Part shown: in pieces, positions 1-15,420 of the stretch | Layout: each line of letters opens with the position of its first letter | Position numbering within the stretch: the first letter of the stretch is position 1 | From: a virus | IMG/VR virus record: IMGVR_UViG_3300035137_000015 | Span: 1 to 53,031 of that record | DNA length: 53,031 nucleotides | Strand: one strand, 5' to 3' | Notes under the pieces: generated by a model | What the model was told of the DNA's origin: nothing | The model's input: only the letters and a program-made list of their open reading frames with translations | The model's database searches: none | Program-made: the position numbers and the translations under genes

Positions 1-67
1 GGGCGCATACAAACATGGCAGCCCCGGGGGTGGGGTTCACAGTACCTTTTTACAGTTGGGCTTTAAT
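1..67. other. left part of intergenic cos-candidate region
   Basis: Bases 1-16 are identical to bases 53016-53031, so the contig closes into a circle here. On the circle, this stretch joins 52890-53031 to make a gap of about 210 bases upstream of the small terminase gene. That is where lambda-type phages carry cosN and cosB. It contains a GC-rich run with GCCCCGGGGG near position 20. No gene was seen. Confidence 0.4.
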
Positions 68-451
68 TTAGTATACAGGCATGTCCTCGTCAGCGACAAC
101 GGTCACTTTGCTCGCGCTGTCGAAGTCAACAACGTGCTCATGCGGAATCACCTCCTCGTGAAGTCGCTGGTGCGTCGCCTCATCCGGCGCGAGGTACATC
201 GTTATATCCAGCCTGTTGCCGCGCTTCTCCACCTGCGGCTTCGGCATCTTGATGCTGATATATTTGTACCAGTCGCAATACCGTTTGAATCCGTCCATGA
301 TGGCCCGTCTCGTCTTCGGTCTTATCCTGGACATCGTGGCCTTCTCACACTGGATGTTCGATCCAGTGAGCATATCTCTCACGGCGGCATAGACGGCGCC
401 AACGTAGATGGCCCGCTCCTTCTTCTTCCTCAGCCTCTTCCTACCCCTCAT
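68..451 (-). CDS. hypothetical protein, basic N-terminus
   Basis: This is a 127-residue protein that I do not recognise. It begins with a strongly basic stretch (RGRKRLRKKKER), followed by a mixed alpha/beta body containing FKRYCDWYKYISIKMPKP around residues 65-80. The start at 451 was chosen because GAGGAGG lies six bases upstream; the longer open frame would overlap the upstream gene almost completely. It overlaps that gene by 11 bases and is the last gene of the long minus-strand series before the terminase promoter region on the circle. A nucleic-acid-binding role would fit the basic tail but is only a guess. Confidence 0.6.
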   Translation of the reverse strand: MRGRKRLRKKKERAIYVGAVYAAVRDMLTGSNIQCEKATMSRIRPKTRRAIMDGFKRYCDWYKYISIKMPKPQVEKRGNRLDITMYLAPDEATHQRLHEEVIPHEHVVDFDSASKVTVVADEDMPVY

Positions 452-704
452 CGCCGTCCTCCTCGCGCATCTTCCTCTCAATCTCGTCAAGCCGCTTGTC
501 CATATGAACATAGCGCTCCATCCAAACCAGAAGCTTCTTCTCCACCTCGCAGACCTCGCGCCCAATGCCCTCGATTGCCCTGAGCCTTTCCAAGATGTCC
601 TCCTGGACCTTCTCTACTGCTGATACCCTGCTGACGAAGTCCTGATACATCCAAAAAAGCTTTGCGTGAAGCTCCGAAGGCTTCATATCGTCGATGTCTG
701 TCAT
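441..704 (-). CDS. small coiled-coil protein
   Basis: This is an 87-residue, charged, mostly helical protein with heptad-like spacing of Val, Leu and Ile from about residue 25 to the end (VEKVQEDILERLRAIEG, then VEKKLLVWMERYV). It looks like a dimeric coiled coil. The family was not recognised. The start at 704 is preceded by AAAGGCG at proper spacing. The gene follows a 113-base gap holding an inverted repeat (CTATAC-GTTG-GTATAG near 783-798) and is translationally coupled to the next gene. Confidence 0.6.
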   Translation of the reverse strand: MTDIDDMKPSELHAKLFWMYQDFVSRVSAVEKVQEDILERLRAIEGIGREVCEVEKKLLVWMERYVHMDKRLDEIERKMREEDGDEG

Positions 705-782
705 TGATTTTCGCCTTTCGAATTCGATACATTGATCGAATATGCCATCCCGCGCCCCCTCCCACAGCGCCCTCAAACTCTA

Positions 783-799
783 CTATACGTTGGTATAGG
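783..799. promoter_or_regulatory. inverted repeat CTATAC...GTATAG
   Basis: A perfect 6-base inverted repeat with a 4-base spacer lies in the gap upstream of the gene starting at 704. On the minus strand it contains TATAGT, a plausible -10 hexamer, but no well-spaced -35 box is visible. It could be an operator or a small hairpin. Confidence 0.3.
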
Positions 800-816
800 G
801 GCGCAAGGGGGAGATC

Positions 817-1578
817 TTAACCCCTGTTCCGAAACGCCCGCTGCTTCTCAATCTGCCGGATCAGTGCGTCTCGGTAGTAGTCCCCGAGGTGGGCCGTTAC
901 AAACCGTGTAGGCGGCCCTAGCCAATCCCTTGCCCTCGTGTACAAGGTCGTGTGTTCCATGCTGTAGAGCATCCGGAGGCGGGCACCTGTGGGCCATCCG
1001 CGCTTGACTCTGCGCCCCCCGAGTACGCGGTAGAAGCCCTTTTTGTACTTGTTGGAGGCCTTCCCCCTGACACCAAGAAAAATCGTCCTGTCGCCCGACT
1101 CGACAGCATCCTGGACGCGCCTAATAACGGCCTGCTTGGTGTTCTTGTACTTTTCCCGAATGCGCTTCGCCACTTTGAGCCGGTTTATCCAGTTGGACCG
1201 ACGAATCACCCGGGTCCTCGGCTTCGCCCCCTCCTGGCCCGCTGCAGCCGACGTGGGCAGGGGGACTCCGTGCTTGCCCCGCGTGTGCTCGGTGAACCCT
1301 TCGGTCTGCTTCCGCATGAAGTCCTCGGTGGAACCGGCCGCGCTCTCCATGTCTTCGATTCGTCGCGAGAAGGTCTTCTGGAAGCGGATCGATCTCTGAA
1401 CGAAGGTGTTCCGGATGGTGAAGAGTTGCCCGACCTTTTTTTTGGACAAGTCGCTCGCCTTGTAGGCGGCGGTGTTGAGCGTGCCACGGATTGCGTAGGG
1501 CATCCCCTGTTTGCCGAACTTGTCGAGATCGTTCTCGTACTGCTCGAGGGGGTAGGTGTCTAGTTTGATGTCAAACAC
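817..1578 (-). CDS. basic phage protein of unknown function (possible virion protein)
   Basis: This is a 253-residue, very basic protein. The N-terminus is acidic-neutral (LEQYENDLDKFGKQG) and leads into IRGTLNTAAYKASDLSKKK, a pattern often seen in small phage neck or minor virion proteins. The middle and C-terminus are Arg/Lys-rich. I chose a GTG start at 1578 because GGAGAGGAGA lies just upstream; the upstream lipoprotein gene overlaps it by 8 bases. Its position far from the head and tail modules is unusual if it is a virion protein. No domain can be named with confidence. Confidence 0.6.
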   Translation of the reverse strand: MFDIKLDTYPLEQYENDLDKFGKQGMPYAIRGTLNTAAYKASDLSKKKVGQLFTIRNTFVQRSIRFQKTFSRRIEDMESAAGSTEDFMRKQTEGFTEHTRGKHGVPLPTSAAAGQEGAKPRTRVIRRSNWINRLKVAKRIREKYKNTKQAVIRRVQDAVESGDRTIFLGVRGKASNKYKKGFYRVLGGRRVKRGWPTGARLRMLYSMEHTTLYTRARDWLGPPTRFVTAHLGDYYRDALIRQIEKQRAFRNRG

Positions 1579-1837
1579 CGCCGTCTCCTCTCCCTGCGTC
1601 CGGATACCCGATGCCACCGGCGGGCTCCGGGTAGGTTTCGGCATCCTCGTCAGCATCCGTGTCGGTGTCGTCCGCTTCGGCGAGCAAGCCGTGGGCAAGC
1701 GGAGCATCCGTCCTCTCAAGCATCGGAACAACTGGCTCCGTGTCCGTGAGCGCTTCGGTGTCGGTGTCCGCCGGGGCCGCCTCGTGGCACCCGACGATAG
1801 CCATCACAAAAACAATCTTCATCAGTTTTCCAAGCAT
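1571..1837 (-). CDS. small putative lipoprotein, Asp/Thr-rich
   Basis: This is an 88-residue protein. A short hydrophobic signal (MKIVFVMAIVGC) ends in a lipobox-like cysteine at residue 17. It is followed by Asp/Thr/Glu repeats (ADTDTEALTDTEP and DDTDTDADEDAET). The acidic repeat style matches the larger lipoprotein at 23701-24222. GGAGG sits 5 bases upstream of the ATG. The likely location is the envelope; a role in superinfection exclusion or lysogen surface change is speculation. Confidence 0.6.
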   Translation of the reverse strand: MLGKLMKIVFVMAIVGCHEAAPADTDTEALTDTEPVVPMLERTDAPLAHGLLAEADDTDTDADEDAETYPEPAGGIGYPDAGRGDGGV

Positions 1838-1858
1838 TCATTCCTCCTTCGTTGGTCA

Positions 1859-2020
1859 TCACTTGGATCGTAGCACTTCGTAGGTCTCCGAACCAATGTT
1901 TTCCGCACGCGCCTGAGCGTTCGAGCACCTGCGCCCCCAACGGATGTACGCGCACCCACCCTTGCTGGTTGTTTCGGCGCTGTAGCAATTCTCAAAGTGG
2001 GAGCACGGCGCTCCGCACAC
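1859..2020 (-). CDS. possible small cysteine-rich protein
   Basis: This tentative gene encodes 53 residues from a GTG codon. It holds five cysteines (VCGAPC, NCY, GGC, RRC) and a C-terminus reading AQARAENIGSETYEVLRSK, which has protein-like composition. It fills an otherwise empty gap between the lipoprotein and the zinc-ribbon gene. No convincing ribosome binding site is visible and the frame is closed just upstream, so the start is uncertain. A metal-binding role is possible. Confidence 0.35.
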   Translation of the reverse strand: MCGAPCSHFENCYSAETTSKGGCAYIRWGRRCSNAQARAENIGSETYEVLRSK

Positions 2021-2059
2021 CCAGGGTGTTCGGAGCAGTATCCGTGCCTGGCTTCATGC

Positions 2060-2407
2060 TCACTCCCTAGATGCACCTTTCGGAATTTGTGGACAAGGCG
2101 AAACAGAATTCCACTTGTTTGTGACGTGGTTCACCCGGTCAACAAACGCCTCCATGGTACAGCCATGATCTGCAACAAACAGAGGCACCCCGTCTTCACC
2201 ATCCTTGCTGTCGTATAGCTCTACATGAAACATGCACTCCTTGTTCTGGCAATGTAGATAGAGGCGATATTGGCGGTCTCCAGCCTGCTGGAGGTACCAT
2301 GCCGGAAGCTTCCCGCAGTACGGGCATGGGCCTGGCCGCCAAATGAGAAATGCGCCAAACTCAGCGCTTTTTTTGGGTTCTACTTTTATATCCATCTTTG
2401 ACTCCAT
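2060..2407 (-). CDS. zinc-ribbon protein, Lar-like
   Basis: This is a 115-residue protein with two cysteine pairs (CPYC near residue 28 and CQNKEC near residue 53) that would form a zinc ribbon. Its C-terminal part ends in FVDRVNHVTNKWNSV, like the EAIEAWNRR tail of phage Lar-type restriction-alleviation proteins. The match is by pattern only. The start at 2407 is preceded by AAAGGA. Upstream lie a short hairpin and the first GC-rich repeat array, the same arrangement as for the gene at 2771-3502. If Lar-like, it would modulate host type I restriction. Confidence 0.65.
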   Translation of the reverse strand: MESKMDIKVEPKKSAEFGAFLIWRPGPCPYCGKLPAWYLQQAGDRQYRLYLHCQNKECMFHVELYDSKDGEDGVPLFVADHGCTMEAFVDRVNHVTNKWNSVSPCPQIPKGASRE

Positions 2408-2459
2408 TCTTCGTTCCTTTCGTTTCCGAGTTAAAAACCGTGTTTTACACCCCGTCGGG

Positions 2460-2765
2460 TCTTTGCTGGGCTCAGCCTGGCTGCGCCGTTCCTCTGCCCA
2501 TCCTTGCCACGCCGTTGCATCGCCACGCCTTGCGACGCATTGCCGTTGCAATGCTCGGCCGCGCCCTGCACAGCCGTTGCCCGGCCGAGCAATACGAAGC
2601 CGTTGCAGCGCCTGGCCGCGCAGCGCGAGGCCACGCCGCTGCCATGCCGTTCGAAGCCTCGCCCTGCCGTTGCAAAGCACTGCCCCGCCATGCGAGGCCA
2701 AGCCGTCGCAAGGCAGTACCGGGCCCTGCCAAGCCTTTGCCAAGCGGAGCCGCGCAACGCCGTCG
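2460..2765. repeat. degenerate GC-rich pentamer repeat array 1
   Basis: About 300 bases consist of a degenerate repeat with GC dinucleotides spaced every 5 to 6 bases. On the plus strand it reads as variations of TGCCGTTGC. Open frames on both strands through it are low-complexity artefacts. It lies between the genes ending at 2771 and starting at 2407, and is followed on the minus strand by a small hairpin (ACCC/GGGT near 2449-2460). Confidence 0.85.
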
Positions 2766-2770
2766 CAAAC

Positions 2771-3502
2771 CTATTGAATCTCTTCCCACTCAAACCGACC
2801 CATCCCGCTGTTCCGCCACTGTCCGATCCCCTTGCGCTTCCCGTAATCCAGTGCCTGGCGGACGAATTTCTCGTATCCCGGATACATTACCTCTACCTCA
2901 AATTCGATCTGAGAGCCCTTCGGGATCTTCTCCGAGCACGCCAGCGCGACGCGCTCCCCCTTCATCGTTTCGGCTCGGAGCGGCCTGACCTCAAGCTTGT
3001 CATTTTTGTGATCTGGTTCCAGCGACCTCTTGCACCAGTCGACAGAGCTTTGACCTTCTGGGAATTTGATCGGGATTTCGCGAGGGTAAACGAAAATGTA
3101 ATTGTCCACCCGGCGCTTCACGACAAAGAACGAAATCTCACTGCATCCTGTTGGCCGGATGACTCCGCCATTGTCGACGAATATTCCGAACATCTCCTTG
3201 ATGAACCCTTTGATCTGGTAATCCAAGAAGATCGGAACGTTCTCATCGTCCTCGGACCTGCGGAAAACGGTCATGCCCTTTTCCTCAAGCTCCTCCTGCG
3301 GGAGGTTTTTAAGCTCGTCCTTGACCTTCTCCTTGTCTGCCGAGTTTTTACCGATGTGCTTTGAGTATATCTCGGGATCGGCCGGAGATGTACCGAGGAC
3401 CGGCCTCGTGAATGTGAGCCGGACCTTGATGGTTTTCGGATCGAACTCTGCTGTTTTCTTCGGTGGTTTTGCGGTTTTCTTTTCGGTTTTCTTTTCAGTC
3501 AT
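2771..3502 (-). CDS. phage protein with RAMP-like Gly-rich C-terminus
   Basis: This is a 243-residue protein. The first 20 residues are Lys/Thr-rich and probably disordered. The body contains FLDYQIKGFIKEMFG near residues 90-105 and the C-terminus reads GIGQWRNSGMGRFEWEE. A glycine-rich loop of that kind (GxGxxRNSGxGRF) is typical of RAMP-fold Cas proteins, and it also occurs in a family of uncharacterised phage proteins found near recombination genes. I infer a ferredoxin-like fold with possible RNA binding; no catalytic residue can be named. It lies between two GC-rich repeat arrays, downstream of the type IV-B-like operon. Confidence 0.7.
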   Translation of the reverse strand: MTEKKTEKKTAKPPKKTAEFDPKTIKVRLTFTRPVLGTSPADPEIYSKHIGKNSADKEKVKDELKNLPQEELEEKGMTVFRRSEDDENVPIFLDYQIKGFIKEMFGIFVDNGGVIRPTGCSEISFFVVKRRVDNYIFVYPREIPIKFPEGQSSVDWCKRSLEPDHKNDKLEVRPLRAETMKGERVALACSEKIPKGSQIEFEVEVMYPGYEKFVRQALDYGKRKGIGQWRNSGMGRFEWEEIQ

Positions 3503-3539
3503 TTTTCTTGCCTTTCAGCTGGTTGTTTCGCCCCGTGGG

Positions 3540-3812
3540 GCCTTTGCTTTTCAAGTCATCGCCTTGCTCTGCCGTTGCCGGGCAGTGCCGAGCATTGCCG
3601 TTGCCCTGCTGCGCCGCGCCACGCCGCTGCCATGCCGTGCAAAGCCTCGCCCTGCCGTTGCTACGCCGAGCGCCGCACTGCCGTTGCCGAGCTGCGCGAC
3701 GCTTTGCCGTTGCTCTGCCGGGCAAAGCCCTGCCCCGCCGTTGCTGGGCTTTGCTGCTCGCCGCGTTGCCGTTGCATTGCCAGGCAGATCTGAGCCAAGC
3801 CGTTGCTGCCAT
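3540..3812. repeat. degenerate GC-rich pentamer repeat array 2
   Basis: This is a second array of the same style as 2460-2765, with TGCCGTTGC and CTGCCGTTGC units recurring on the plus strand. It fills the gap between the sigma factor stop (3817) and the start at 3502. On the minus strand it ends in a GCCCC/GGGGC hairpin (3530-3541), then the ribosome binding site. It is non-coding as far as can be seen. Confidence 0.85.
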
Positions 3813-3816
3813 CTGC

Positions 3817-4554
3817 TCATCGTCTCCTTGCCTTCGCATAAATCCGAATCCTCTCCTCTACATCAACCTGTATCTGCCGTATTCTCTCCCGCGTCAGCCC
3901 GAGGATATCCCCGACTTCAGCCAATGACATCCCGGCCGCGCGGCAGGTGAAGACGATCCGCTTCTTCGCATCCATCCGCATCACCGCGCACCATGCAACA
4001 CGGCGCATTTCATCGACGGAAATCCTGTCTACCGTCTCGTTTTCACCACCAGGCCCCGGTATGACATCTTTCAACGTGAACCCGTCGTCTTTGTGTCGAA
4101 GCTCAACGTCCATCGACTCGCAATAGACCAACGCTTCACAAATCTTCTTCGCGCCTTTTTTCGACAACTGCCCCCTTCGTAATTCGAGGGCCTCAACCGC
4201 CTCGTCAATGGTAGGCATTCTGCCCGTTCGCCGCTCTTCCTCCTTTCGGTACTTGTGAACCTTTCGGCGGATCTCGTCTGCGTGGAATGGGACATAAATG
4301 TGACTGCTCAGGACGATTGCGCGTTGAATAAAACACCGGATCCACCAGTGAGCGTAGGTCGAAAACTTGAAACCCCTCGATTCGTCGAAAAGCTCTGCCG
4401 CCCGCAGAAGTCCGATATATCCCTCCTGCTTGATGTCCTCGATGTCCATCCCAGATCGCCGATACTCGTTTGCTATGGCCGCGACGAGCCCCTTGTTCTC
4501 GATGGCGAGTTGGTTTCTGCGGTCAATCGCGGCATGATCCATCGCGGCGCTCAT
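3817..4554 (-). CDS. sigma-70 family RNA polymerase sigma factor
   Basis: This is a 245-residue sigma factor. Region 2 is clear: NEYRRSGMDIEDIKQEGYIGLLRAAELFD, then the region 2.4-like FKFSTYAHWWIRCFIQRAI (about residues 30-80). Region 4 is also clear: the helix-turn-helix near residues 205-235 contains AGMSLAEVGDILGLTRERIRQIQ. A shortened region 3 lies between. It would direct polymerase to phage promoters, perhaps the late ones. The start ATG overlaps the stop of the cysH-like gene (ATGA), so it is co-translated with the type IV-B-like operon. Confidence 0.9.
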   Translation of the reverse strand: MSAAMDHAAIDRRNQLAIENKGLVAAIANEYRRSGMDIEDIKQEGYIGLLRAAELFDESRGFKFSTYAHWWIRCFIQRAIVLSSHIYVPFHADEIRRKVHKYRKEEERRTGRMPTIDEAVEALELRRGQLSKKGAKKICEALVYCESMDVELRHKDDGFTLKDVIPGPGGENETVDRISVDEMRRVAWCAVMRMDAKKRIVFTCRAAGMSLAEVGDILGLTRERIRQIQVDVEERIRIYAKARRR

Positions 4555-5255
4555 TTGACAACGCCCGAAGCTGCGATTCTGTTCAAGACATCTGGGTAGT
4601 ACTCTCGCTCCCATTCGGTTCTCCCCATGCCGTTCCCTGTCGTTCCGGACAGCGAGTGTGTTCGGAGATTCTCTCTTTTGTACCGTCCTCCTCCCAGATA
4701 TCCGTAGACCGGTGAAAGCGGAAGTCCATTATCGTGGATGTATGCGAATATTTCAGACGATCTCCAAAGAGACAGCGGCCTACAACTGTTTTTGCTAGCG
4801 AAACCATTGACGCACCATTGCAATGAGCGAACCGAAGATTCATCATTTCTAATGCCAGAGCACCTCTTTCCATACTTTTCAAAAAGTATTTTCCAATGTT
4901 TGTCTCCTTTTCTCACATCGCGATATTCGAAAACTTCTTCTTTGTAATCGAAATCGTGGGTGCGCATGAAGACGTCTCTAACCGAATCACAGTCCGGATT
5001 TGCCCGGTCACTAAATCGCATATACACAACAGATCTTTCGATGCCGCATTTCAAAAATAAATCCAACAATACGATACTATCTTTTCCCCACGAAACCATA
5101 ACGCAAGATTTATCGTTAGAGGAAAGGAAATCTCGCATCACGGTTATTGACTGGTCGCATTTCTGCTCCGACCATTTAGACATCGCATCAATCTCCTCGT
5201 AGTCTGACCACAAAGCGAGATCTTCTGTTGAGTGCCTATCTGTACGTATCAGCAT
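4551..5255 (-). CDS. cysH: CysH-like PAPS reductase/PP-loop protein of type IV-B
   Basis: This is a 234-residue protein of the PP-loop ATP-pyrophosphatase superfamily, with VSWGKDSIVLLDL near residues 53-65 as the nucleotide loop. True CysH reduces PAPS to sulfite. The copies linked to type IV-B CRISPR loci keep the PP-loop, but their role is unknown. The protein has several cysteines (CDS, CSGIRN, WCVNG, NSCRP). The start at 5255 overlaps the small regulator gene by 7 bases and the stop overlaps the sigma factor gene. Its position next to csf genes is the diagnostic feature of subtype IV-B; a sulfate-assimilation role in a phage seems unlikely. Confidence 0.85.
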   Translation of the reverse strand: MLIRTDRHSTEDLALWSDYEEIDAMSKWSEQKCDQSITVMRDFLSSNDKSCVMVSWGKDSIVLLDLFLKCGIERSVVYMRFSDRANPDCDSVRDVFMRTHDFDYKEEVFEYRDVRKGDKHWKILFEKYGKRCSGIRNDESSVRSLQWCVNGFASKNSCRPLSLWRSSEIFAYIHDNGLPLSPVYGYLGGGRYKRENLRTHSLSGTTGNGMGRTEWEREYYPDVLNRIAASGVVK

Positions 5256-5440
5256 ATCCTATACCTGTTCCCTGGAAGTTCTTGCACCGGCAAAAACAAT
5301 GACAGTTCGTTGATTATCCTAATTGCTGTCCTGCGGTTCACTTCAAGCAATGCAGCAATTTCGGATGTAGTGTGCTCCCTTGATCTCAATGCGTCCTCGG
5401 CTCTCCTGCGCCGTTGGTATGGCGTGTCTGTTCTCAGCAT
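5249..5440 (-). CDS. small helix-turn-helix regulator
   Basis: This is a 63-residue protein with an apparent winged-helix or helix-turn-helix core, HTTSEIAALLEVNRRTAIRIINEL (two stretches around residues 23-46). It resembles the N-terminal DNA-binding domain of DeoR or IclR-type regulators without an effector domain. It overlaps csf3 by 7 bases upstream and the cysH-like gene by 7 bases downstream. It is therefore produced with the Csf proteins and may regulate that operon. Confidence 0.7.
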   Translation of the reverse strand: MLRTDTPYQRRRRAEDALRSREHTTSEIAALLEVNRRTAIRIINELSLFLPVQELPGNRYRIC

Positions 5441-6117
5441 GGTATCCCCACTTCCATGAATGTTTCTGGGTGCCAGTACGGTGGGAAAGCGCCACCGAAA
5501 GAATGTCGGTATCCGGTAGCATGGGCATCCTTTACGGCTCCTATCGGCAGCGTCTTCATTAGGACAGTCCCTCCCTTATTCGGTGCGAACAGGGAGTAAT
5601 CATCAGGCTGTTCGGAGTATTCCCATCCGGCTATTCTACCGTACCCGTATGACCTGCAATGCCCAAGCGCTACGATGCGCTTCAGGAGCTTGTTCATCTC
5701 CTTCCTGTCCCCGCGAACAAACCAGTTGACGGAATCTACAACGCGTATACGGAGCGGAACAAAACGCGATTTATAAGGGCCGCTCGAGGTGAGGAGCTTC
5801 TTCCTGCTTCGCGCGCCAAGAAGCGCCGCGCAAATGTCGGTATCGAACCTCTTTGATTGTCGCTCCGTGTATTCGGCAAACACGTTTCCGAGTATCGGAT
5901 CAGAGGAGCAGTAAAAATCGATCCCACCGATGGTTCGCTTGGAAACCGGGATCGGCGGGTGCTTGATTTCGGACAGCGGCACGTTCCGCGTGAGCTTCTT
6001 CGCCATCTTGTACCCGAGGCGAAGCGCCAGCTCGTATTCGAGCAACGCATCAATCCGAGGGGGGGCCCCGCAAAGCGGTGATGACAAGTTGCACTTCACT
6101 AGCCAGTTCTTCAGCAT
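5434..6117 (-). CDS. csf3: Csf3 (Cas5-like) subunit of type IV CRISPR complex
   Basis: This is a 227-residue RAMP-type protein. The N-terminus LKNWLVKCNLSSPLCG is a typical first RAMP beta strand. LGHCRSYGYGRIAGWE near residues 165-180 is the glycine-rich loop. In type IV complexes Csf3 plays the Cas5 role, capping the 5' end of the guide RNA. Spacing, order and coupling (TGATG with csf2) support the call. The start at 6117 has GGGAGAA upstream. The open frame extends further 5', but that part overlaps csf2. No catalytic nuclease residues are expected or seen. Confidence 0.8.
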   Translation of the reverse strand: MLKNWLVKCNLSSPLCGAPPRIDALLEYELALRLGYKMAKKLTRNVPLSEIKHPPIPVSKRTIGGIDFYCSSDPILGNVFAEYTERQSKRFDTDICAALLGARSRKKLLTSSGPYKSRFVPLRIRVVDSVNWFVRGDRKEMNKLLKRIVALGHCRSYGYGRIAGWEYSEQPDDYSLFAPNKGGTVLMKTLPIGAVKDAHATGYRHSFGGAFPPYWHPETFMEVGIPC

Positions 6118-7013
6118 CAGAAATTCTCCCGTAGCCACTCGGAGAGCTCGTCGACGTGTGTATTGACGTGGGCGATGTAATCTTTGATAAGCTCGCACGG
6201 GTCTTTCAGCGCACCGAACCAATCTTCGAGACCCTCGATGTGCAGCGACGTGTTGAGCTTCCCGTGCCCGATTCTCGCGCTTCCACCGATGGTCCCGCCG
6301 CCGTTTTGCCAGAGGTGGATCGCGTGGAGCGCCGCCCCTACCTCCAACGGTGACACGTTGTACAGAATCACATCGTGATAAAATATCGCGCCCTGAATAA
6401 CGGTCTCTCCATTGTACACCATTAGATTTGATTTCGGTGCCGCGTCGCCCTTCACGATCTCTGAAGCGTCTTTCATTCTTGCCGCGTCACCTCGTGTATA
6501 CTGATACTTCGAAATGAACGATTGAGCGGGCATCAATTTTTCATCCACAATTCCGAATATTGATGGAGCGGTTTTTTCGAGCACGCCCTTATTCTCTTCG
6601 CAGACCAAAATACCGCGCGACACGAACAGGGACCCGCCGACGACCTGGTTCTTCAGCGCACCTCCGAGAAGACGATACAGTGGAGACACCGTGTGGAGCT
6701 TTGCGATCGCAGGGATGTTGTCCGTAGTGGAAGACTCCGTCAGGCTCCCGCCGGTGAACATGTAGTTCGCCTGGTCGATGTTCAGGTTCCCGCGTAAGCC
6801 GCAGGCGTCGACCAGGTACAGAGCCCCAGGCCCACGGATCATCCGGTGGCGAAGCGCATTGCCGCTGAGCACCGGAACTTCTACCACGTCGTTCTTGAAG
6901 ACGACCTTCTCTCGGTTAAGGATTGACTCGTTACCCGATACGCCTGACATGTGCGTAATCGGAGACATGGCCTCTGAGAGCATATGAATTTTGCATGTCC
7001 CGATCTGTTTCAT
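6117..7013 (-). CDS. csf2: Csf2 (Cas7-like) backbone of type IV-B CRISPR complex
   Basis: This is a 298-residue Cas7-type RAMP protein. Its N-terminal MLSEAMSPITHMSGVSGNES, the following VPVLSGNALRHRMIR and the later LLGGALKNQVVGGSLFVSRG match the pattern of IV-B backbone subunits as I know them. Several copies would line up along the RNA to form the filament. The ATG at 7013 overlaps the stop of the small-subunit gene (TGATG), with AAGGAAGG upstream. A GTG one codon earlier is an alternative start. This is the most recognisable gene of the operon. Confidence 0.87.
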   Translation of the reverse strand: MKQIGTCKIHMLSEAMSPITHMSGVSGNESILNREKVVFKNDVVEVPVLSGNALRHRMIRGPGALYLVDACGLRGNLNIDQANYMFTGGSLTESSTTDNIPAIAKLHTVSPLYRLLGGALKNQVVGGSLFVSRGILVCEENKGVLEKTAPSIFGIVDEKLMPAQSFISKYQYTRGDAARMKDASEIVKGDAAPKSNLMVYNGETVIQGAIFYHDVILYNVSPLEVGAALHAIHLWQNGGGTIGGSARIGHGKLNTSLHIEGLEDWFGALKDPCELIKDYIAHVNTHVDELSEWLRENF

Positions 7014-7474
7014 CACTCACCTTCCTTTAGGTCACGCTTAGCGTCTTTTATCGATCCCCACAGATTTCTGGCGTAAACCAGTATCACATTGCTCTTCTTC
7101 TCGATTGTCCGAAGGAATGCCATCTTGTCATCATCGCTCTTCTGCTCAAACGATATGAGCCATTTTTCGAGACGAGAGTTTGATGCAACCATAGCAGGAT
7201 TGGCCTTGATGAAATCCAGCGCCAAGTTGACAAACTCCTCGAAGTCTCCACCACACTTTTTGCATGATGAAACAATTCCATTTCCAATGCGTTCCCACAT
7301 CGTCATCCGGTCGAGCTCTGAAGAAAACAGCTCAGGCAAAATCGAACAGAAGCTGACCGCGTTTCCTTTCGCTTCCTCCATCATCTCGGCATTTTGATCG
7401 CTTGTTCGGTAATCGATCACTCCCGCAAGCTTCTGTCTGAACTCTTGCGCTGACAAAATCTTCATCTCTCGCAT
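7013..7474 (-). CDS. cas11: putative Cas11-like small subunit of type IV-B complex
   Basis: This is a 153-residue, all-helical charged protein between csf1 and csf2, the position of the small subunit in subtype IV-B loci. Sequence conservation of small subunits is low, so the call rests on size, helical content and order. There is a CKKC pair near residue 71. The start at 7474 was chosen because AAAGGA lies seven bases upstream; the open frame begins 30 codons earlier. The gene overlaps the 3' end of csf1 by 143 bases, which is unusual. Confidence 0.65.
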   Translation of the reverse strand: MREMKILSAQEFRQKLAGVIDYRTSDQNAEMMEEAKGNAVSFCSILPELFSSELDRMTMWERIGNGIVSSCKKCGGDFEEFVNLALDFIKANPAMVASNSRLEKWLISFEQKSDDDKMAFLRTIEKKSNVILVYARNLWGSIKDAKRDLKEGE

Positions 7475-8165
7475 CCTTTTTTCCTTTGCATACCCAAGCC
7501 GCAATTCGCGCCATGGGCTCATTGTGAATTTCGATCCATTCCTCAAGAATGGTTTCGTCTCCAAAATACTTCACGGTATTCAGAAAGCACGTAAACTCCT
7601 CTGGTGAAAGCAGCGCCTTCTTTCCAATCGCAGCGCTGGCCAACGTTGCTGCTTTCAAGAAATGTTCCCAGCGGCCTGCATCTATCTCAATCTGCTCTTC
7701 CTCGAGTTGGACAACAAACCATTCCCTATCGTTATTGACCGGAGCCCTAAAGATGATCTGCTTTTTCCCGCTTTCGGCGAGAACGATTGAAAACGGTGGA
7801 GCCGGGGGACATGACAAAATCTTCCTAGCGTAATCGAGATGTTTTTTACTGAACGCCGTGTTCCCCTGGGTTGATAGAACCCACGAATAGGTCCTAGGAG
7901 CTCCTCCCCTACCGGTCTTTACCTCGCCGTCAACGAGAGTTGTGTCGACGATGGTGTCCATTGATGCCACGCAGCATCCACAAACAAAATCGCTTCCAGG
8001 AAACTTGACTATGTCTCTATTGGTGAATGTCTTCTTTACGTATACGGATTTATTGTATTCGTTTCCGCATTCGAGACCGCAATAGTAACACCTGTTGTTA
8101 CCTGGAATATATTTATCTGGCGCGAATAGATATGGAGCAGTCATAAACGATGGGGTAATCATCAT
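7332..8165 (-). CDS. csf1: Csf1 (Cas8-like large subunit), type IV CRISPR
   Basis: This is a 277-residue protein with the two cysteine pairs expected of Csf1: CYYCGLEC near residues 26-33 and CGCC near residues 61-64, a four-cysteine zinc-finger arrangement. The remainder is helical (FLKAATLASAAIGKKALLSPEEF). Csf1 is the signature large subunit of type IV effector complexes. The last 47 residues are read from a frame shared with the small-subunit gene, and their Arg/Lys/Ser-rich composition suggests they are not part of the fold. The ATG directly follows the stop of the spanin-like gene, with GGAAGG upstream. Confidence 0.8.
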   Translation of the reverse strand: MMITPSFMTAPYLFAPDKYIPGNNRCYYCGLECGNEYNKSVYVKKTFTNRDIVKFPGSDFVCGCCVASMDTIVDTTLVDGEVKTGRGGAPRTYSWVLSTQGNTAFSKKHLDYARKILSCPPAPPFSIVLAESGKKQIIFRAPVNNDREWFVVQLEEEQIEIDAGRWEHFLKAATLASAAIGKKALLSPEEFTCFLNTVKYFGDETILEEWIEIHNEPMARIAAWVCKGKKDARDEDFVSARVQTEACGSDRLPNKRSKCRDDGGSERKRGQLLFDFA

Positions 8166-8657
8166 TCACCTTCCAATCACGAGCGCACCGATGATAATTC
8201 CAACCCCGACACCAACCAGCGTCGCACCGCCGCCAATCAGTATCGCTCGTAGCTTTGCCTTCCTGGCCTCTCCCCCGGCTCTCTTCTGGTCGCTCTCGCG
8301 GAGTTGGTACACAAACTGCCTGTCGTCCTCTGCGGCCCTTAGCGTCGTGTTACAGCGCTCCAGGGATGTCTCGAGGGATGATAGGTGAAGCTCAATGTTT
8401 TCGACCTCATCATTCAGCTCAAGGTGCAACTCGGAGAGCGTCCGGTATGTCGCATAAATCCTGAGCACGCCCTGGAACCCGCGAAAGTCCGTCTTGACAA
8501 ACTCTTTCCCTCCGATCTCGAGTCGCTCGAAATCCGGGAGCGGCAAATCAAGGTTTATATCGGACCTTCCCTTGTCCGCGTAACTCATCCGCGATTGTAA
8601 GCAGGTCACCAATGCTGCCAGCAGAATCAATCCTGTCAACGGTCTCGGCGTTTGCAT
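8166..8657 (-). CDS. putative spanin component with C-terminal membrane anchor
   Basis: This is a 163-residue protein with an N-terminal hydrophobic signal (LTGLILLAALVTC, a weak lipobox), a long coiled-coil middle (LHLELNDEVENIELHLSSLETSLE) and a C-terminal membrane segment (LIGGGATLVGVGVGIIIGA). Signal plus coiled coil plus terminal anchor is the plan of unimolecular spanins, which fuse inner and outer membranes at lysis. It starts inside the upstream gene (110-base overlap, AAGGAGAAA upstream of the ATG), like overlapping Rz/Rz1 pairs. csf1 follows with no gap. Confidence 0.6.
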   Translation of the reverse strand: MQTPRPLTGLILLAALVTCLQSRMSYADKGRSDINLDLPLPDFERLEIGGKEFVKTDFRGFQGVLRIYATYRTLSELHLELNDEVENIELHLSSLETSLERCNTTLRAAEDDRQFVYQLRESDQKRAGGEARKAKLRAILIGGGATLVGVGVGIIIGALVIGR

Positions 8658-8928
8658 CGTATTTCTCCTTCACGTGCTCTTTTATTTCGTCTCGGATCTT
8701 CTTCATCCTGTCCCGGTCGGCTTCGGCCGCTGCCTCGGTCTCGAAGTGCGACTCAACGCGGTCGTCAACCGACGCCTTGTGATGGGTCACGATCTCTTCC
8801 GGGGTCACGCGTACCGAGCAGCGCCACATGAATAGTAGGGCGATGCCGAGCACCACGGGGATGGCGAGAAGTACCTTCCAATACCATTTCAGGTTGACGA
8901 ATCCATCCCATAGGGTTTTGGGTGTCAT
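8548..8928 (-). CDS. Rz-like inner-membrane spanin candidate
   Basis: This is a 126-residue protein with one N-terminal membrane segment (WKVLLAIPVVLGIALLFMW, residues 17-35) and a charged helical periplasmic part (EAAAEADRDRMKKIRDEIKE). Topology and position between holin and the next spanin-like gene fit an i-spanin. Sequence identity to known Rz proteins was not recognised. It overlaps the holin gene by four bases (ATGA). Confidence 0.6.
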   Translation of the reverse strand: MTPKTLWDGFVNLKWYWKVLLAIPVVLGIALLFMWRCSVRVTPEEIVTHHKASVDDRVESHFETEAAAEADRDRMKKIRDEIKEHVKEKYDANAETVDRIDSAGSIGDLLTIADELRGQGKVRYKP

Positions 8929-9221
8929 GGCGTCTCCTTTCTGTTCTGGCTGGTCTCGCGCCGCTTTTCGAGATGGCCCTCAATGTCGTTCGAAAGCGCT
9001 CCCTTCACGGTCCCAAGAAACCGGTCCACCGTCGCCTGGTTTGTGAGGTACGACACCGTCACGGTTGTGAGCCCAAGGGCGATGATGCCCATTACAACCC
9101 CGGTCATCGTGTTGAACGCTGCGCCCTGGACGATGGCCAGCACCAGACACCCTCCAAGAACCGCGATCGACGCAAAGAATGCGGCGAACTTTTTCGAGTT
9201 AAAAATATTTTTGTCTTTCAT
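8925..9221 (-). CDS. putative holin
   Basis: This is a 98-residue protein with two predicted membrane segments (FFASIAVLGGCLVLAIVQGA near 15-34 and MTGVVMGIIALGLTTVTVSYL near 38-58) and a charged C-terminus rich in Glu, Arg and Lys. Size, topology and position between the amidase and the spanin genes support a holin that opens the inner membrane for the endolysin. The start ATG overlaps the preceding stop. Confidence 0.7.
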   Translation of the reverse strand: MKDKNIFNSKKFAAFFASIAVLGGCLVLAIVQGAAFNTMTGVVMGIIALGLTTVTVSYLTNQATVDRFLGTVKGALSNDIEGHLEKRRETSQNRKETP

Positions 9222-9427
9222 TTCTCGACCCCCTTGAGTGTCTCCTTCCAGTTGGAGACGAAGAGGGGCACGCCGTAACCGTGTTTGAAGCTCCATCGGC
9301 TTTCAAGCGGCGTAACGTCTGCCCTCTCGGAGAACCCCCATGGTGTCCCCCATTGGTCAACGGCGAAGCGGTCGCAATCCACCGGCACCTCTACCTCGAT
9401 TTCGATCTTTACTCGTCTCGTTTTCAT
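9218..9427 (-). CDS. small hypothetical protein in lysis cassette
   Basis: This is a 69-residue soluble protein that is not recognised. The N-terminus is a charged beta strand (RRVKIEIEVEVPVD), followed by several aromatic residues (WGTPWGF, SRWSFKHGYG). ATGA overlaps on both sides place it firmly in the lysis operon. Confidence 0.6.
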   Translation of the reverse strand: MKTRRVKIEIEVEVPVDCDRFAVDQWGTPWGFSERADVTPLESRWSFKHGYGVPLFVSNWKETLKGVEK

Positions 9428-9663
9428 GGCGTCACGCCCTCCAGTTCGCACAAGCTTTTTTCCAAATCCTCGCAATACGGAGGAATGTCGACCTCGCAAG
9501 AATCCGCGCAATTCATCCATTGTCCTCGAAATTTTATTGGCTTGAAAACGCCAAAAACACGAACCGATTTATCCCAGTCAATCGCAATCCATTCAGCCCA
9601 GTTCGGGCACCAGACGGTATGGTCAACGCCATCGCACCTGAATTTCTTCATTACGATTCTCAT
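9424..9663 (-). CDS. small hypothetical protein, Trp- and Cys-rich
   Basis: This is a 79-residue protein with five tryptophans and six cysteines (WCPNWAEWIAIDWD; CADSCEVDIPPYCE). It may bind metal or be disulfide-stabilised. No family was recognised. It overlaps the amidase stop and the next start by four bases each. Confidence 0.6.
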   Translation of the reverse strand: MRIVMKKFRCDGVDHTVWCPNWAEWIAIDWDKSVRVFGVFKPIKFRGQWMNCADSCEVDIPPYCEDLEKSLCELEGVTP

Positions 9664-10271
9664 GGCGTCACCGTGTCCATTTCATATCGAAGCATCGCCG
9701 CGACATGCGAAGCGGCGATCGCTTGTCGCCCTGCTGGCCGGGATAGAAGTTCGCAGTCGCTTTTCGATGTCATGAATCCGTTTTCGGTGAGCACGGCAGG
9801 CATCTTAGTGCGCTTCAAGACGTAAAAACCCGCCACCTTTATGCCCCTGTTTCGGAGAACTATTTGGGGGAGTTCTTCAGACAGAATTAACGCCAGGTTC
9901 TGTTCTGGAATGGATGCTCCAGGTTTTATGAACACCGCAAAACCTTCTGCGTTGCTCCACCCTCCTTTCCCGGACGCGTTCGCGTGAACAGAGATGAACG
10001 CGCAACGGTGCGTCTCGTTGAGCTTGTTTGCTCGCCGTACGCGCTCCCGCAATGGAATCGATTCTTTTTGGACCACGATGTCAACGCACTGAATACCTGC
10101 CGCCTCTCCGAGGCTTATGATCCGGTTGACAACATCTCGGTTGAACTCCCACTCATAGATCCCTGGCGGAATCTCCGGACTTCTTTTCCCAGGCGTGTCA
10201 CACCCGTGACCAGGGTCAAGAAGCCAAAGCAGTTTTGACGGGTCTATGTTTGTGATCTTGATGTCAGTCAT
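9660..10271 (-). CDS. N-acetylmuramoyl-L-alanine amidase (endolysin)
   Basis: This is a 203-residue Amidase_3-family enzyme that cleaves the bond between muramic acid and the stem peptide of peptidoglycan. The zinc ligands are visible: LLDPGHG with the first His near residue 19, a Glu in the WEFNRDVVNRI strand, and FISVHANA with the second His. The catalytic Glu is in VLTENGFMTS. No signal peptide is seen, so export would depend on the holin. AGGAGAAG precedes the ATG at 10271. Confidence is high. Confidence 0.92.
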   Translation of the reverse strand: MTDIKITNIDPSKLLWLLDPGHGCDTPGKRSPEIPPGIYEWEFNRDVVNRIISLGEAAGIQCVDIVVQKESIPLRERVRRANKLNETHRCAFISVHANASGKGGWSNAEGFAVFIKPGASIPEQNLALILSEELPQIVLRNRGIKVAGFYVLKRTKMPAVLTENGFMTSKSDCELLSRPAGRQAIAASHVAAMLRYEMDTVTP

Positions 10272-10272
10272 C

Positions 10273-10485
10273 TCACTTCTCCTTCGCGAGCAACTCGCGG
10301 AGCTTCGCGCGTGCGTCCGCGCGGGCATCTCGTGATGTGCATTTGCCGAATTCGGAGTTTTTGCAATACGGACTCATCATTTCCGGAACGCAAAAACGGC
10401 AATGTTTGTCGTCCCCCGTAGACCCGCAGAAATACCTCAACACTTTTCCCCTGGCGCTTACCGCGCACATGTTTCGTTTAGTCAT
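10273..10485 (-). CDS. small Cys-rich protein
   Basis: This is a 70-residue protein with Cys at MCAV, FCG, CRFC, YCK and KCTS, suggesting one or two metal sites, and a helical Ala/Arg-rich tail (ARADARAKLRELLAKEK). It was not recognised. The start overlaps the preceding stop by 8 bases, with GGAGGGAC upstream. Confidence 0.6.
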   Translation of the reverse strand: MTKRNMCAVSARGKVLRYFCGSTGDDKHCRFCVPEMMSPYCKNSEFGKCTSRDARADARAKLRELLAKEK

Positions 10486-10714
10486 CGTCCCTCCATTGGC
10501 ACGACAGATCGCGCCTCGTCTCCCAGTCGTCGCAACCGGACATATTGGCACTCACGTACCACTCGTTTTTGATGCACGCCCCGTACCATTGCGGGGGCGG
10601 CTTTTTCGGTAGTCTGATGAGCAGCGGAAGAGAGTCGCGTCGCTCGAAGTCTCTGCCCTTTTTCGATCTGCGGTAGTGGATGCACTTCCCGCAGGGTTTT
10701 TCCGGAGCGCCCAT
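10478..10714 (-). CDS. small Cys-rich protein
   Basis: This is a 78-residue protein with PCGKC near the N-terminus and later ACIKN, GCDDW and SCQW. The spacing suggests a zinc-binding knuckle, as in many short phage proteins between replication and lysis genes. Function is unknown. It abuts the VRR nuclease gene. Confidence 0.6.
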   Translation of the reverse strand: MGAPEKPCGKCIHYRRSKKGRDFERRDSLPLLIRLPKKPPPQWYGACIKNEWYVSANMSGCDDWETRRDLSCQWRDDD

Positions 10715-11103
10715 CAGTACACCTTCCCTTGGATAAACTCGCCTATCATGTAGGCTTCTATCGCGTTGATCCCTGACTGCGCCGGGTAGTCGGTCCTGGT
10801 CACGAATGTTGCAAATCCTTGTCTTCGGACGTATTCGCCAAACGCGATCTGTTCCGGTGACAACTTGTCCTCCCCGACTTTGACCTCGACGTACAGCCCG
10901 TTGTGCAAACTTCTAAAGTTGGGAACCGGCATAAACAGATCCCACACTCCGGCGAGGACTCCCTCGCGCTTGAGCTTCGCGGCCTCGGTTTTGCTGCGCT
11001 TGCCACCGTTCGGGCACGCGTAGATCCACTCCGCTCCGCCGCCACGGAGACGGCAATACCTGACGATCTCGCATTGGGCCTTGTGGTGTTCATCGGATCT
11101 CAA
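10714..11103 (-). CDS. VRR-NUC domain nuclease
   Basis: This is a 129-residue single-domain protein of the VRR-NUC family, a PD-(D/E)XK-type nuclease found in phages and in FAN1. Visible motifs are the N-terminal EHHKAQCEIVRYCR, CPNGGKRSKTEAAKLKREG, the GVWDLFMP acid, and LYVEVKVGEDKLSPEQ carrying the E-x-K pair. It probably acts on branched DNA. The start is TTG at 11103, overlapping the stop of the Dam gene. A 15-base repeat suggests the original ATG start was displaced when the Dam gene was inserted. Confidence 0.85.
   Translation of the reverse strand: MRSDEHHKAQCEIVRYCRLRGGGAEWIYACPNGGKRSKTEAAKLKREGVLAGVWDLFMPVPNFRSLHNGLYVEVKVGEDKLSPEQIAFGEYVRRQGFATFVTRTDYPAQSGINAIEAYMIGEFIQGKVY
11088..11102. 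repeat. 15-bp direct repeat, downstream copy
   Basis: GTTCATCGGATCTCA here is identical to 12125-12139. The two copies bracket the Dam methylase gene exactly. Confidence 0.85.
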
Positions 11104-12140
11104 AACAGACTCCCTTGCTCGCTGGCTACACAGTGAGGAGAAAACCAAATCCTCTCCTTGTATTTGTTTTTGTTGCCATCAGAGTTCCGTGAAGCATATC
11201 CTCCTCTTGTTTTCCAAGATACGCATTCCCAGCTTGGCGGCATCTCGTGCTCTCCTTCATAGCCGCAGAGCGCGATCCGCATGTTCTTGTCTTCACCGTG
11301 TTCAATTGCCCACCTCCTCACATCATCGGACACCGAAAGCGACTCTTTTGCGTACAAAGATGAGCATCTTTGAGCGGCTTCGCCGTAGGGAGGGTCCAAA
11401 AATACGGCTGTGGTCCCCCGTATTGTGGTTGGTGTTGGGCCACATACCCGAGACCAGTCTCCGCAACAAACTCTCACGCGTCGCATGCGTTCGGACAGTT
11501 TTTCGAACCACTCATAAATTCCGCCCTTCCTGTGGACGCCTCGCCCGGCATTCCCGAGGTGGACGAGCTTCCTGTGGACGCCTCGCCCGGCATTCCCGAG
11601 GTGGACGAGCTTCCTGTGGACGCCTCGCCCGGCATTCCCGAGGTGGACGAGCTTCCTGTGGACGCCTCGCCCGGCATCCCCGAGGTGGACGAGCTGGCCG
11701 TCTACGACCTGCCACGGACCTTTCCCGCTGCAAAATTCGCTTCCTATCCAACAGCAGATCCCCCAGACCCACCACCCGGCTATTTTTGCGTCGTAGTAAT
11801 CCGGGTCACCCTCGAGGAGTGGAGTCAAACTTTCCCGCTGGTTGATCAACCACGCGTGACGCGCATGGAGATCATTTTCGTTCACAGGCCAATCTGCGTA
11901 ACGAGCCACTTCGCTAGGATCAGACGATACGGATCTCCAAAAGTTGGCAACAAATCCGTCCAGGTCGTTGATCGTTTCTGTCCTGTTAACGCGCGGAGAG
12001 CCGAGCAATACAGCACCAGATCCGAAAAACGGTTCAACGTAATTGTCAACCTGGCCAAATCTTTTCCAGACAAGATCGGCGACCATCGACTTTCCGCCAA
12101 ACCATGGGAACGGGGCCTTTAGCGGTTCATCGGATCTCAT
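11100..12140 (-). CDS. DNA adenine N6-methyltransferase (Dam/D12 class)
   Basis: This is a 346-residue D12-class adenine methylase. PFPWFGGKS (residues 10-18) and VEPFFGSGAV (FxGxG motif) bind S-adenosylmethionine; FLDPPYG near residue 250 is the DPPY catalytic motif. It would methylate phage DNA, probably protecting it from host restriction. A 14-residue unit (LVHLGNAGRGVHRK) repeated four times is inserted between the target-recognition region and motif IV. The gene is bracketed by 15-base direct repeats and looks like a late insertion. Confidence 0.9.
   Translation of the reverse strand: MRSDEPLKAPFPWFGGKSMVADLVWKRFGQVDNYVEPFFGSGAVLLGSPRVNRTETINDLDGFVANFWRSVSSDPSEVARYADWPVNENDLHARHAWLINQRESLTPLLEGDPDYYDAKIAGWWVWGICCWIGSEFCSGKGPWQVVDGQLVHLGDAGRGVHRKLVHLGNAGRGVHRKLVHLGNAGRGVHRKLVHLGNAGRGVHRKGGIYEWFEKLSERMRRVRVCCGDWSRVCGPTPTTIRGTTAVFLDPPYGEAAQRCSSLYAKESLSVSDDVRRWAIEHGEDKNMRIALCGYEGEHEMPPSWECVSWKTRGGYASRNSDGNKNKYKERIWFSPHCVASEQGSLF
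11526..11693. repeat. 42-bp tandem repeat, four copies
   Basis: Four direct 42-base units begin with CTTCCTGTGGACGCCTCGCC on the plus strand. They lie in frame inside the methylase gene, each coding for 14 residues. Copies differ by only a few bases, so the expansion is recent or kept uniform. Confidence 0.95.
12125..12139. repeat. 15-bp direct repeat, upstream copy
   Basis: Identical to 11088-11102. This copy contains the ATG start of the Dam gene; the other copy lies at the start of the VRR nuclease gene. Confidence 0.85.
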
Positions 12141-12645
12141 CGATCACCGTCCTGATTGCGCTGCGGACCTCTGGAGTCCAAACGATGTTTTCGTGGTTCG
12201 TGCCTTCGACCAGGGTATTGATCGCTCCGTATCCAGATACATCCACACCCTTCGGTGACGCGTCCCGCTGGTACAGGTTGATCGTCTTATGAGAGACTTT
12301 CTTCGCCTTCACAGCGTGACCAAACAGACCGTGTAGTACGCTGGTAGGGTCAATCGATATGACGCGCTCTACGCGCTCCCAGCGGTCTCCAGCGTTGAGC
12401 ATGCGGAACATCCGTACCGCTCCGAGGGATTTGCCGATGCACACAACACCTGTCCAGTCCACAAAAAAAGTGTCGAACAATCTTCCCATTTCTCGAGTTG
12501 ACGTAATTGGGAAAGTATAAAAATATAAGCCTCCAACTTCTTCCCTGACGACATCCTTCACCGCCCTGGCGACATCCGCCACCGCGTCATATAGCGGAGT
12601 GTCCCCGCTGCTCGAAGCAGCGCCCTCGAAACATATGATCCTCAT
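12127..12645 (-). CDS. alpha/beta-hydrolase-like protein
   Basis: This is a 172-residue protein. CIGKSLGAVRM near residues 70-80 is a nucleophile-elbow-like GxSxG variant (GKSLG). VISIDPTS supplies a possible acid, and GTNHENIVW near the end a possible catalytic His. The order nucleophile, acid, histidine fits a small esterase or lipase. Its substrate is unknown. It ends inside the Dam start region, so the 15-base repeat overlaps its stop. Confidence 0.55.
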   Translation of the reverse strand: MRIICFEGAASSSGDTPLYDAVADVARAVKDVVREEVGGLYFYTFPITSTREMGRLFDTFFVDWTGVVCIGKSLGAVRMFRMLNAGDRWERVERVISIDPTSVLHGLFGHAVKAKKVSHKTINLYQRDASPKGVDVSGYGAINTLVEGTNHENIVWTPEVRSAIRTVIDEIR

Positions 12646-12764
12646 TTCCTAATCACCGAAGTCCCTTCAAAAGAATATTTCCGGCCGCCGACTTCAACCG
12701 GCTCTTTTACTGCGTTTTCTGCCAACCCGATTATTGTGTCCAGTCCGTCTTTCAACCAAGTCAT
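12642..12764 (-). CDS. small 40-residue protein
   Basis: This short frame begins MTWLKDGLDTIIGLAENAV and ends YSFEGTSVIRK. AAGGAGGA lies 6 bases before the ATG, and ATGA-type overlaps link it on both sides. The first half is an amphipathic helix. Function is unknown. Confidence 0.55.
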   Translation of the reverse strand: MTWLKDGLDTIIGLAENAVKEPVEVGGRKYSFEGTSVIRK

Positions 12765-13109
12765 TTCGATCCTCCTTTGTGCGCCTCAAGGTGCGCTTCA
12801 ATACTCAATTGATCTGCCATTGGAATGCTCCCTATTCCATCCCTGGAGATGGTCACAAATCCAGTCCGTGGTATGTCTCCACCTCGTTTCAGATCGACTT
12901 CGCATTCTATTTGGGCCTGAGCCCTGGAGCCATCTGAAGGTGGCTTGAGCTTGATTTTGAGCGTTACAGTTCTGGTCTTTGTCGGGTGCGTGTTCGGATC
13001 TGCGATGTCCTTTGTTGCCTGCTTCAGTGCGTGATCTACATCCGCCACAACCCCTTGGTTTGCTGTAATTGCAGCGAGGCATATTTCTTCATACGGTAGC
13101 ATCCCCATT
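12761..13109 (-). CDS. hypothetical protein
   Basis: This is a 115-residue protein, not recognised. The N-terminus is helical (ICLAAITANQGVVADVDHALKQA) and the rest is beta-rich (RTVTLKIKLKPP, IECEVDLKRGGD), as in some phage proteins described as replication-terminus-like. The start at 13109 has AAAGGA upstream. Confidence 0.6.
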
Positions 13110-13112
13110 GTC

Positions 13113-13553
13113 TTATTCCTTTCTTTGAGACATTCGTCTCCACGTCCGAAGGCGCTGTTTGATTGTTTTGACTCCACGATTGCATGAGCCTGTGGCGTAC
13201 CTTCGAAGCCCTTCTTCCAGAGAGCCGCAGAATCGCCTTGATTCGTCCATCAACATGGCCATGCAGTAGATGCCGCCTCGATAGGTTGCCGGGTTGTAGC
13301 CGCCATCCTCGCAGCGCTGGCGGGCAACCCCGTGGTATTGTCCGAGCCCTACCTCTCCAAGTTTCCCGGTCCGGTCTGTCCTGATGCTGCTCTCGCGATA
13401 TGCCCAGTACACAAGCAGGGTAGGGGGCACGTCGTATTGCAGCCCAGCCGCCTCGAAATACCCGGACACCTCTGCTCTCAGAACGGGGTCGTGGAGCTCG
13501 TGGCGCGGCGTCGCGGCGATGAGCATCAGGATTAGTTGGGCTACGGCGATCAC
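13113..13553 (-). CDS. lytic transglycosylase-like protein
   Basis: This is a 146-residue protein with an N-terminal hydrophobic signal (AVAQLILMLIAAT) and an SLT-type fold. YRESSI near residue 54 carries the catalytic Glu, followed by GEVGLGQYHG, the usual G(L/I)GQ block. It would cut glycan strands in the periplasm. It begins with GTG overlapping the previous stop, preceded by GGAG. The phage thus has two cell-wall enzymes, the amidase and this one. Confidence 0.75.
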   Translation of the reverse strand: MIAVAQLILMLIAATPRHELHDPVLRAEVSGYFEAAGLQYDVPPTLLVYWAYRESSIRTDRTGKLGEVGLGQYHGVARQRCEDGGYNPATYRGGIYCMAMLMDESRRFCGSLEEGLRRYATGSCNRGVKTIKQRLRTWRRMSQRKE

Positions 13554-14796: not shown

Positions 14797-14802
14797 CACT
14801 CC

Positions 14803-15092: not shown

Positions 15093-15095
15093 ACC

Positions 15096-15386: not shown

Positions 15387-15420
15387 GGCATCTCCTCCCA
15401 CATGCGACCGTCGCACCACT

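What the first reader, a model, noticed from the sequence alone, without database searches (positions are those of the whole stretch)
2460..3812. Paired GC-rich pentamer arrays around a RAMP-like gene
Two arrays of about 300 bases with GC at 5 to 6-base steps flank gene 2771-3502, each followed by a CCC/GGG hairpin and the start of the next gene. Such arrays might form RNA structures, and they lie downstream of the csf operon. They could supply RNA for the Csf complex, but that is speculation.
Basis: partly seen in the sequence, partly recalled or inferred. Interest (0 to 1): 0.65.

Follow-up and report, generated by a model that had tools for sequence, protein, structure and literature searches.

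The report
Phage RAMP protein with guide-RNA arrays
The two odd repeat blocks are most likely arrays of guide RNAs for the small CRISPR-like phage protein between them, a relative of the recently described VIPR phage-versus-phage systems, with a differently built array and a statistical trace of the gene sequences its guides were copied from.

Summary
In detail: two arrays with 5-6-nt steps (3546-3812 and 2460-2770, read on the - strand) flank a RAMP gene (2771-3502), far beyond chance. The interpretation must move from Csf to that RAMP gene. Its family carries such an array beside the gene in 97 of 101 loci (controls 9 of 1207), on the gene's strand, before or after it. Ten csf2-bearing elements have neither array nor RAMP gene; 50 RAMP-gene records gave no csf2 hit. 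Profile and fold point to Cas7/Csm4. The closest described system is VIPR (preprint PMC13142463), where a phage RAMP protein uses YNNGG-repeat RNAs to bind DNA.

This family differs: the unit is NNN-G-[C/A/T], and an AAN-GG-[C/A] hexamer closes modules of usually 26, 31 or 36 nt. The variable bases evolve fast and look copied from genes at three bases per unit: across the invariant G, stop codons TAA and TAG are the two most depleted of 64 triplets, and the effect ends at hexamers. I infer that each module is a guide. No natural target was found and no RNA was measured. Whether the preprint's supplement already lists this type could not be read.

The parts
3546..3812 (-). Upstream array: units NNN-G-[C/A] with hexamer AACGGC about every 26-31 nt; candidate guide-RNA array
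2771..3502 (-). RAMP gene, 243 aa, Vipr-like (Cas7/Csm4-related; G-rich loop GIGQWRNSGMGRF)
2460..2770 (-). Downstream array, starts directly after the stop codon of the RAMP gene; same units and hexamers
3529..3540 (-). Short hairpin GCCC-CACG-GGGC between upstream array and RAMP gene; role unknown
   Evidence: read; one search lists a terminator-like match here only on the + strand
2448..2461 (-). Short hairpin ACCC/GGGT after the downstream array; role unknown
   Evidence: read

Best explanation
The RAMP gene and its two flanking arrays are one unit of the VIPR kind. The arrays are transcribed with the gene (inferred from strand). The RAMP protein coats the RNA, recognising the invariant G of each 5-nt unit (inferred from the published system and the Cas7-like fold). 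The variable bases, three per unit, spell a target codon by codon (supported here by a codon signal in the arrays). The AANGG[C/A] hexamer closes each module of usually 4-6 units, so each module is probably a separate guide (supported: the codon signal stops there). The likely outcome is binding to and repression of genes of competing phages or prophages, as reported for VIPR of phage SUSP1; that step is not shown here.
For: Array next to the gene in 97 of 101 non-redundant loci against 9 of 1207 control positions; 134 of 134 arrays fit the unit model better on the gene's strand (the arrays had first been filtered for G periodicity on that strand, but the list shows no reversed array touching a gene). 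Family profile matches type VII Cas7 (E 5.7e-5) and Csm4; the AlphaFold model (pLDDT 82, pTM 0.78) matches type VII Cas7 best (E 6.5e-8, prob 1.00). Profile against the SUSP1 candidate Vipr ALH47069: p 6.6e-5 with shared G-loop; SUSP1 has 5-nt arrays on both sides of that gene. Gene 96.6% identical with arrays 79%; genes 84-89% with arrays 66-79%; substitutions 13-16% at the three variable positions, 4% at the G. Across the invariant G, triplet p3-p1'-p2' has too few stops (z -6.9); p3 depends on the next p1 and p2 (z 6.9, 7.9) but p2 does not depend on p1' (z -0.2). TAA and TAG are the two most depleted of 64 triplets, same direction in all four subsets of loci, whatever base follows the G, while TAC/TAT are not depleted. 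No such signal across hexamers.
Against: No target found: search of 1.6 Mb of related loci under many reading rules gave nothing above shuffles except low-complexity matches, none in a sister phage, none for two 21-nt readings in IMG/VR. The strict GGY/NN consensus of the preprint is met only at hexamers. No constant accessory gene beside the gene. No conserved 3' tail structure recognised. Whether p2 or p3 sits at the codon wobble base is unresolved. No RNA data.
Confidence: 0.85

Rival explanations
1. DNA-level element: a G every 5.2 bp is half a B-DNA turn, so the array could be a phased site bound as DNA by the RAMP protein or another protein (replication, packaging, partition).
For: Mean unit of about 5.17 nt and superperiod 26 match half turns of 10.4 bp.
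Against: Fixed strand relative to the gene whether the array lies before or after it; codon-like content across units has no reason to exist in a binding site; the fold is that of RNA-coating Cas7.
Confidence: 0.06
2. The arrays provide RNA for the type IV Csf complex of this phage.
For: The csf operon lies upstream on the same strand; type IV-B complexes have no known cognate RNA and assemble on heterogeneous RNA (PMC7937560); no CRISPR array seen in 1-16000.
Against: Ten csf2 elements without arrays; 50 array-bearing phage records with no csf2 hit.
Confidence: 0.03
3. Structured leader or regulatory RNA controlling the next gene; no guides involved.
For: Upstream arrays often end right before a ribosome-binding site; the downstream array folds better than shuffles (z -3.5).
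Against: The upstream array folds no better than shuffles (z -0.5); no Rfam match; unit content diverges fast; position before or after the gene varies; codon signal unexplained.
Confidence: 0.04

Closest known systems
VIPR systems (Vipr protein and vrRNAs), preprint PMC13142463; type II of Escherichia phage SUSP1
   Same: Small phage-encoded RAMP with glycine-rich loop; array of 5-nt repeats beside the gene; fixed G plus hypervariable bases; by inference 3 target bases per 5-nt unit
   Different: Unit is NNN-G-[C/A/T], not GGY/NN; AAN-GG-[C/A] hexamer closes modules of mostly 4-6 units; long continuous arrays (about 250-1500 nt) without spaced tails; no constant accessory gene seen; the third variable base carries information
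Type VII CRISPR Cas7 and type III Csm4/Csm3
   Same: Best profile and fold matches; shared G-loop
   Different: Single RAMP gene, no other effector subunits, no CRISPR repeats; about 15% identity in the fold alignment
Type IV-B CRISPR (csf1, cas11, csf2, csf3, cysH)
   Same: Also present in this phage, 4551-8165
   Different: Its relatives lack these arrays and the RAMP gene
CRISPR array
   Same: Short fixed motif alternating with variable stretches; modules differ between close relatives
   Different: Fixed motif of 6-9 nt, the variable stretch is itself periodic; adaptation genes were not looked for systematically

Membership tests
VIPR | RAMP protein with RRM core and G-loop, branching outside Cas5/6/7 | tested here: inconclusive
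   Fold and profile match Cas7/Csm4 and the G-loop is conserved; separate branching was not tested
VIPR | Phage-encoded, minimal locus | tested here: met
   Viral contigs, plus MAG contigs not checked one by one for prophage; frequent neighbours are SSB, HTH-repressor-like and integrase-like proteins by sequence inspection
VIPR | Tandem-repeat array beside the gene | tested here: met
   97 of 101 loci
VIPR | GGY/NN unit (or, in the preprint's words, a related consensus) | tested here: inconclusive
   Strict GGY/NN not met: NNN-G-[C/A/T], GG only in hexamers. It fits 'related consensus', whose list is in a supplement not readable here
VIPR | vrRNAs of about 100 nt expressed and bound by the protein | not testable with these tools
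   needs small-RNA sequencing and pull-down
VIPR | Noncontiguous code: 3 target nt per 5-nt unit, skip base mostly at codon wobble | tested here: inconclusive
   3-nt stride supported by the codon signal; skip and wobble position unresolved; no target found
VIPR | Accessory vap gene (typical) | tested here: inconclusive
   No protein cluster is constant next to the gene in 101 loci; vap sequences of the seven types were not available
Type IV CRISPR as owner of the arrays | Arrays occur together with csf genes | tested here: not met

The most novel reading that the evidence does not exclude
A VIPR variant with its own grammar: short modules closed by AANGG[C/A] hexamers are independent guides, and all three variable bases of each unit are read, so that the guide follows the target codon by codon with two fixed bases inserted after every third base instead of skipping one target base.
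Probability: 0.35. Interest if true: 0.8.

Novelty: new variant of a known kind. Interest (0 to 1): 0.62.

Why it matters
It extends a very recently described RNA-guided system to a large phage family found in many metagenomes and in gut and rumen bacterial assemblies, gives an array grammar not in the preprint's main text, and shows that target-derived codon structure can be detected in the arrays without knowing any target, which makes the reading rule of such systems testable from sequence alone. It also removes a tempting but unsupported link between these arrays and type IV-B CRISPR, whose natural RNA is still unknown.

Tried and rejected
Target decoding in 1.6 Mb of loci with p1p2, p2p3 and p1p2p3 readings, strides 2-5 and several hexamer rules: the one apparent excess (p1p2, stride 3, z 7.4) came largely from one low-complexity module of L045 and from repetitive DNA in L080; a p1/p3 reading was also empty. 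Sister phage record G051: best of 262 models not beyond multiple testing. Two 21-nt contiguous readings of modules from one group of related phages (L040-L060) in IMG/VR: no match. EM over six codon phases: p1 at the sense wobble is disfavoured, p2 and p3 are not separated, and the within-unit part may reflect plain neighbour effects. Rfam RNA near the arrays: none. Duplicated units as cause of the codon signal: would create dependence between all position pairs, but p2-p1', p2-p3' and p1-p3' have none. RNA-motif avoidance: unlikely as sole cause, because the stop deficit holds for each base after the G. A search with the single window protein in IMG/VR found nothing; only the alignment did.

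Full report
WHAT IS THERE. The window is a 53,031-base virus record. On the - strand, in order: csf1 (8165-7332), cas11 (7564-7013), csf2 (7016-6117), csf3 (within 6222-5434), a cysH-like gene (5255-4551), a sigma-70 gene (4614-3817), an array (3812-3546), a RAMP gene (3502-2771), a second array (2770-2460) and a small gene with a weak zinc-ribbon match (2407-2060). The periodicity is real and confined to the two arrays. A two-token model trained on 83 arrays of the family gives pentamers NNN-G-[C 0.57, A 0.25, T 0.14] and hexamers AAN-GG-[C 0.60, A 0.33]. Pentamers between successive hexamers are usually 4, 5 or 6, so modules are usually 26, 31 or 36 nt. In the window the hexamer is nearly always AACGGC. 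The last pentamer before a hexamer ends in C in 85-91% of modules, and the first after it begins with A in about 56-71%. L106, from a contig titled as Omnitrophota, uses GT where others use GC.

THE GENE OWNS THE ARRAYS. Four phage records hold relatives. Searching with an alignment of those and the window protein found 191 relatives in viral contigs (80 kept) and 24 in genome contigs, most titled as Clostridia or Oscillospiraceae, with single ones titled Coriobacteriales, Gemmatimonadales and Omnitrophota. Arrays lie next to the gene in 97 of 101 non-redundant loci against 9 of 1207 control positions: before it, after it or both, on the gene's strand. Of the loci without one, L033 ends just after the gene and L078 is from a 254-kb phage record. 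Ten elements carrying csf2 relatives have no arrays in the regions read and no relative of the RAMP gene in their whole records. Fifty records with the RAMP gene gave no hit for the window's Csf2 (this query finds near relatives only).

WHAT THE PROTEIN IS. The window protein has no convincing match in Pfam, PHROGs, NCBIfam or PADLOC. The family profile matches Cas7 of type VII complexes (E 5.7e-5) and Csm4 (E 0.0025) in the PDB. The predicted structure matches type VII Cas7 best (E 6.5e-8, probability 1.00, TM 0.48/0.57), then other Cas7-type subunits including Csm complexes and Cas7-11. Among viral models the best is annotated as a Cas system-associated RAMP superfamily protein.

CLOSEST KNOWN SYSTEM. 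A 2026 preprint (PMC13142463) describes VIPR: a phage RAMP protein and RNAs of YNNGG repeats whose NN bases pair with double-stranded DNA; one target base is skipped per unit and usually falls on the codon wobble position; targets are mainly competing phages and satellites. I fetched phage SUSP1 (KT454805). Its GGTNN arrays lie at 27721-27971 and 29151-29241 around the 195-aa gene ALH47069, which I take to be its Vipr from that placement. The family profile aligns with it (p 6.6e-5), sharing the G-loop. SUSP1 arrays have pure 5-nt steps and no 26-nt superperiod.

WHAT THE ARRAYS ENCODE. Arrays diverge faster than the gene beside them. Within modules I compared adjacent pentamers with locus-wise shuffles that keep each unit intact (p1, p2, p3 are the three variable bases; a prime marks the next unit). 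p3 depends on p1' and p2' (z 6.9 and 7.9) although two fixed bases stand between; p2-p1', p2-p3' and p1-p3' show nothing. Stop codons are too few in p3-p1'-p2' (0.052 against 0.069, z -6.9); of 64 triplets TAA (127 for 174 expected) and TAG (41 for 68) are the most depleted. All four subsets of loci go the same way (z -2.0, -5.0, -3.1, -2.3). The deficit holds for C, A and T after the G and is absent for TAC and TAT, so it is not avoidance of one RNA motif; translation of the array cannot cause it because the triplet is not contiguous in the RNA. TGA is not clearly depleted (z -1.4). Codon likelihood favours the same junction on either strand (z 6.5 and 5.4), with nothing across hexamers, where about z 3 would be expected for the same effect with fewer pairs. 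About twenty such junction tests were made in all; the main effect survives that number. I conclude that the variable bases were copied from coding DNA at three bases per 5-nt unit, and that hexamers end a guide. The wobble position is not resolved: mutual-information patterns suit p3, junction stops suit p2, and a mixture fit does not separate them.

WHAT IS SHOWN AND WHAT IS INFERRED. Shown: the arrays, their grammar, their tie to the RAMP gene and its strand, their fast change, the RAMP relationship, the codon signal, and their independence from csf. Inferred: transcription, binding, guide function, repression of competitors. Not found: any natural target, a constant accessory gene, an Rfam RNA, other literature on such arrays in the held library.

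VERDICT. A variant of the VIPR kind. It could be one of the seven types in the preprint; the supplement was not readable here, so novelty of the grammar is claimed only against the main text.

Noticed in passing
window 4551-8165: Type IV CRISPR operon (csf1, cas11, csf2, csf3) with a cysH-like gene and no CRISPR array in 1-16000: looks like subtype IV-B on a phage that also has the RAMP/array unit.
   Followed up: partly
window 3817-4614: Sigma-70 protein whose best NCBIfam and PADLOC matches are the C-terminal part of MzaA of the MZA anti-phage system (score far below the NCBIfam cut-off).
   Followed up: no
window 11526-11695: Four near-identical 42-nt tandem copies (a multiple of three) inside an open reading frame at 11100-12140.
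   Followed up: no
window 13670-13863: Tandem repeats of 12 and 36 nt.
   Followed up: no
L076 and L081: Two related phages with several arrays each, one of about 1.5 kb, and one lying 3-4 kb before the RAMP gene.
   Followed up: partly
L106: Contig titled Omnitrophota with GT in place of GC in nearly every unit; protein and repeat may have changed together.
   Followed up: no
L078: 254-kb phage record with a more distant RAMP relative and no detectable array beside it.
   Followed up: no
L126: IMG/VR record 3300042731_002594 has a terminase 100% identical to the window's; possibly the same phage; its 41-kb contig has no RAMP-gene hit.
   Followed up: partly
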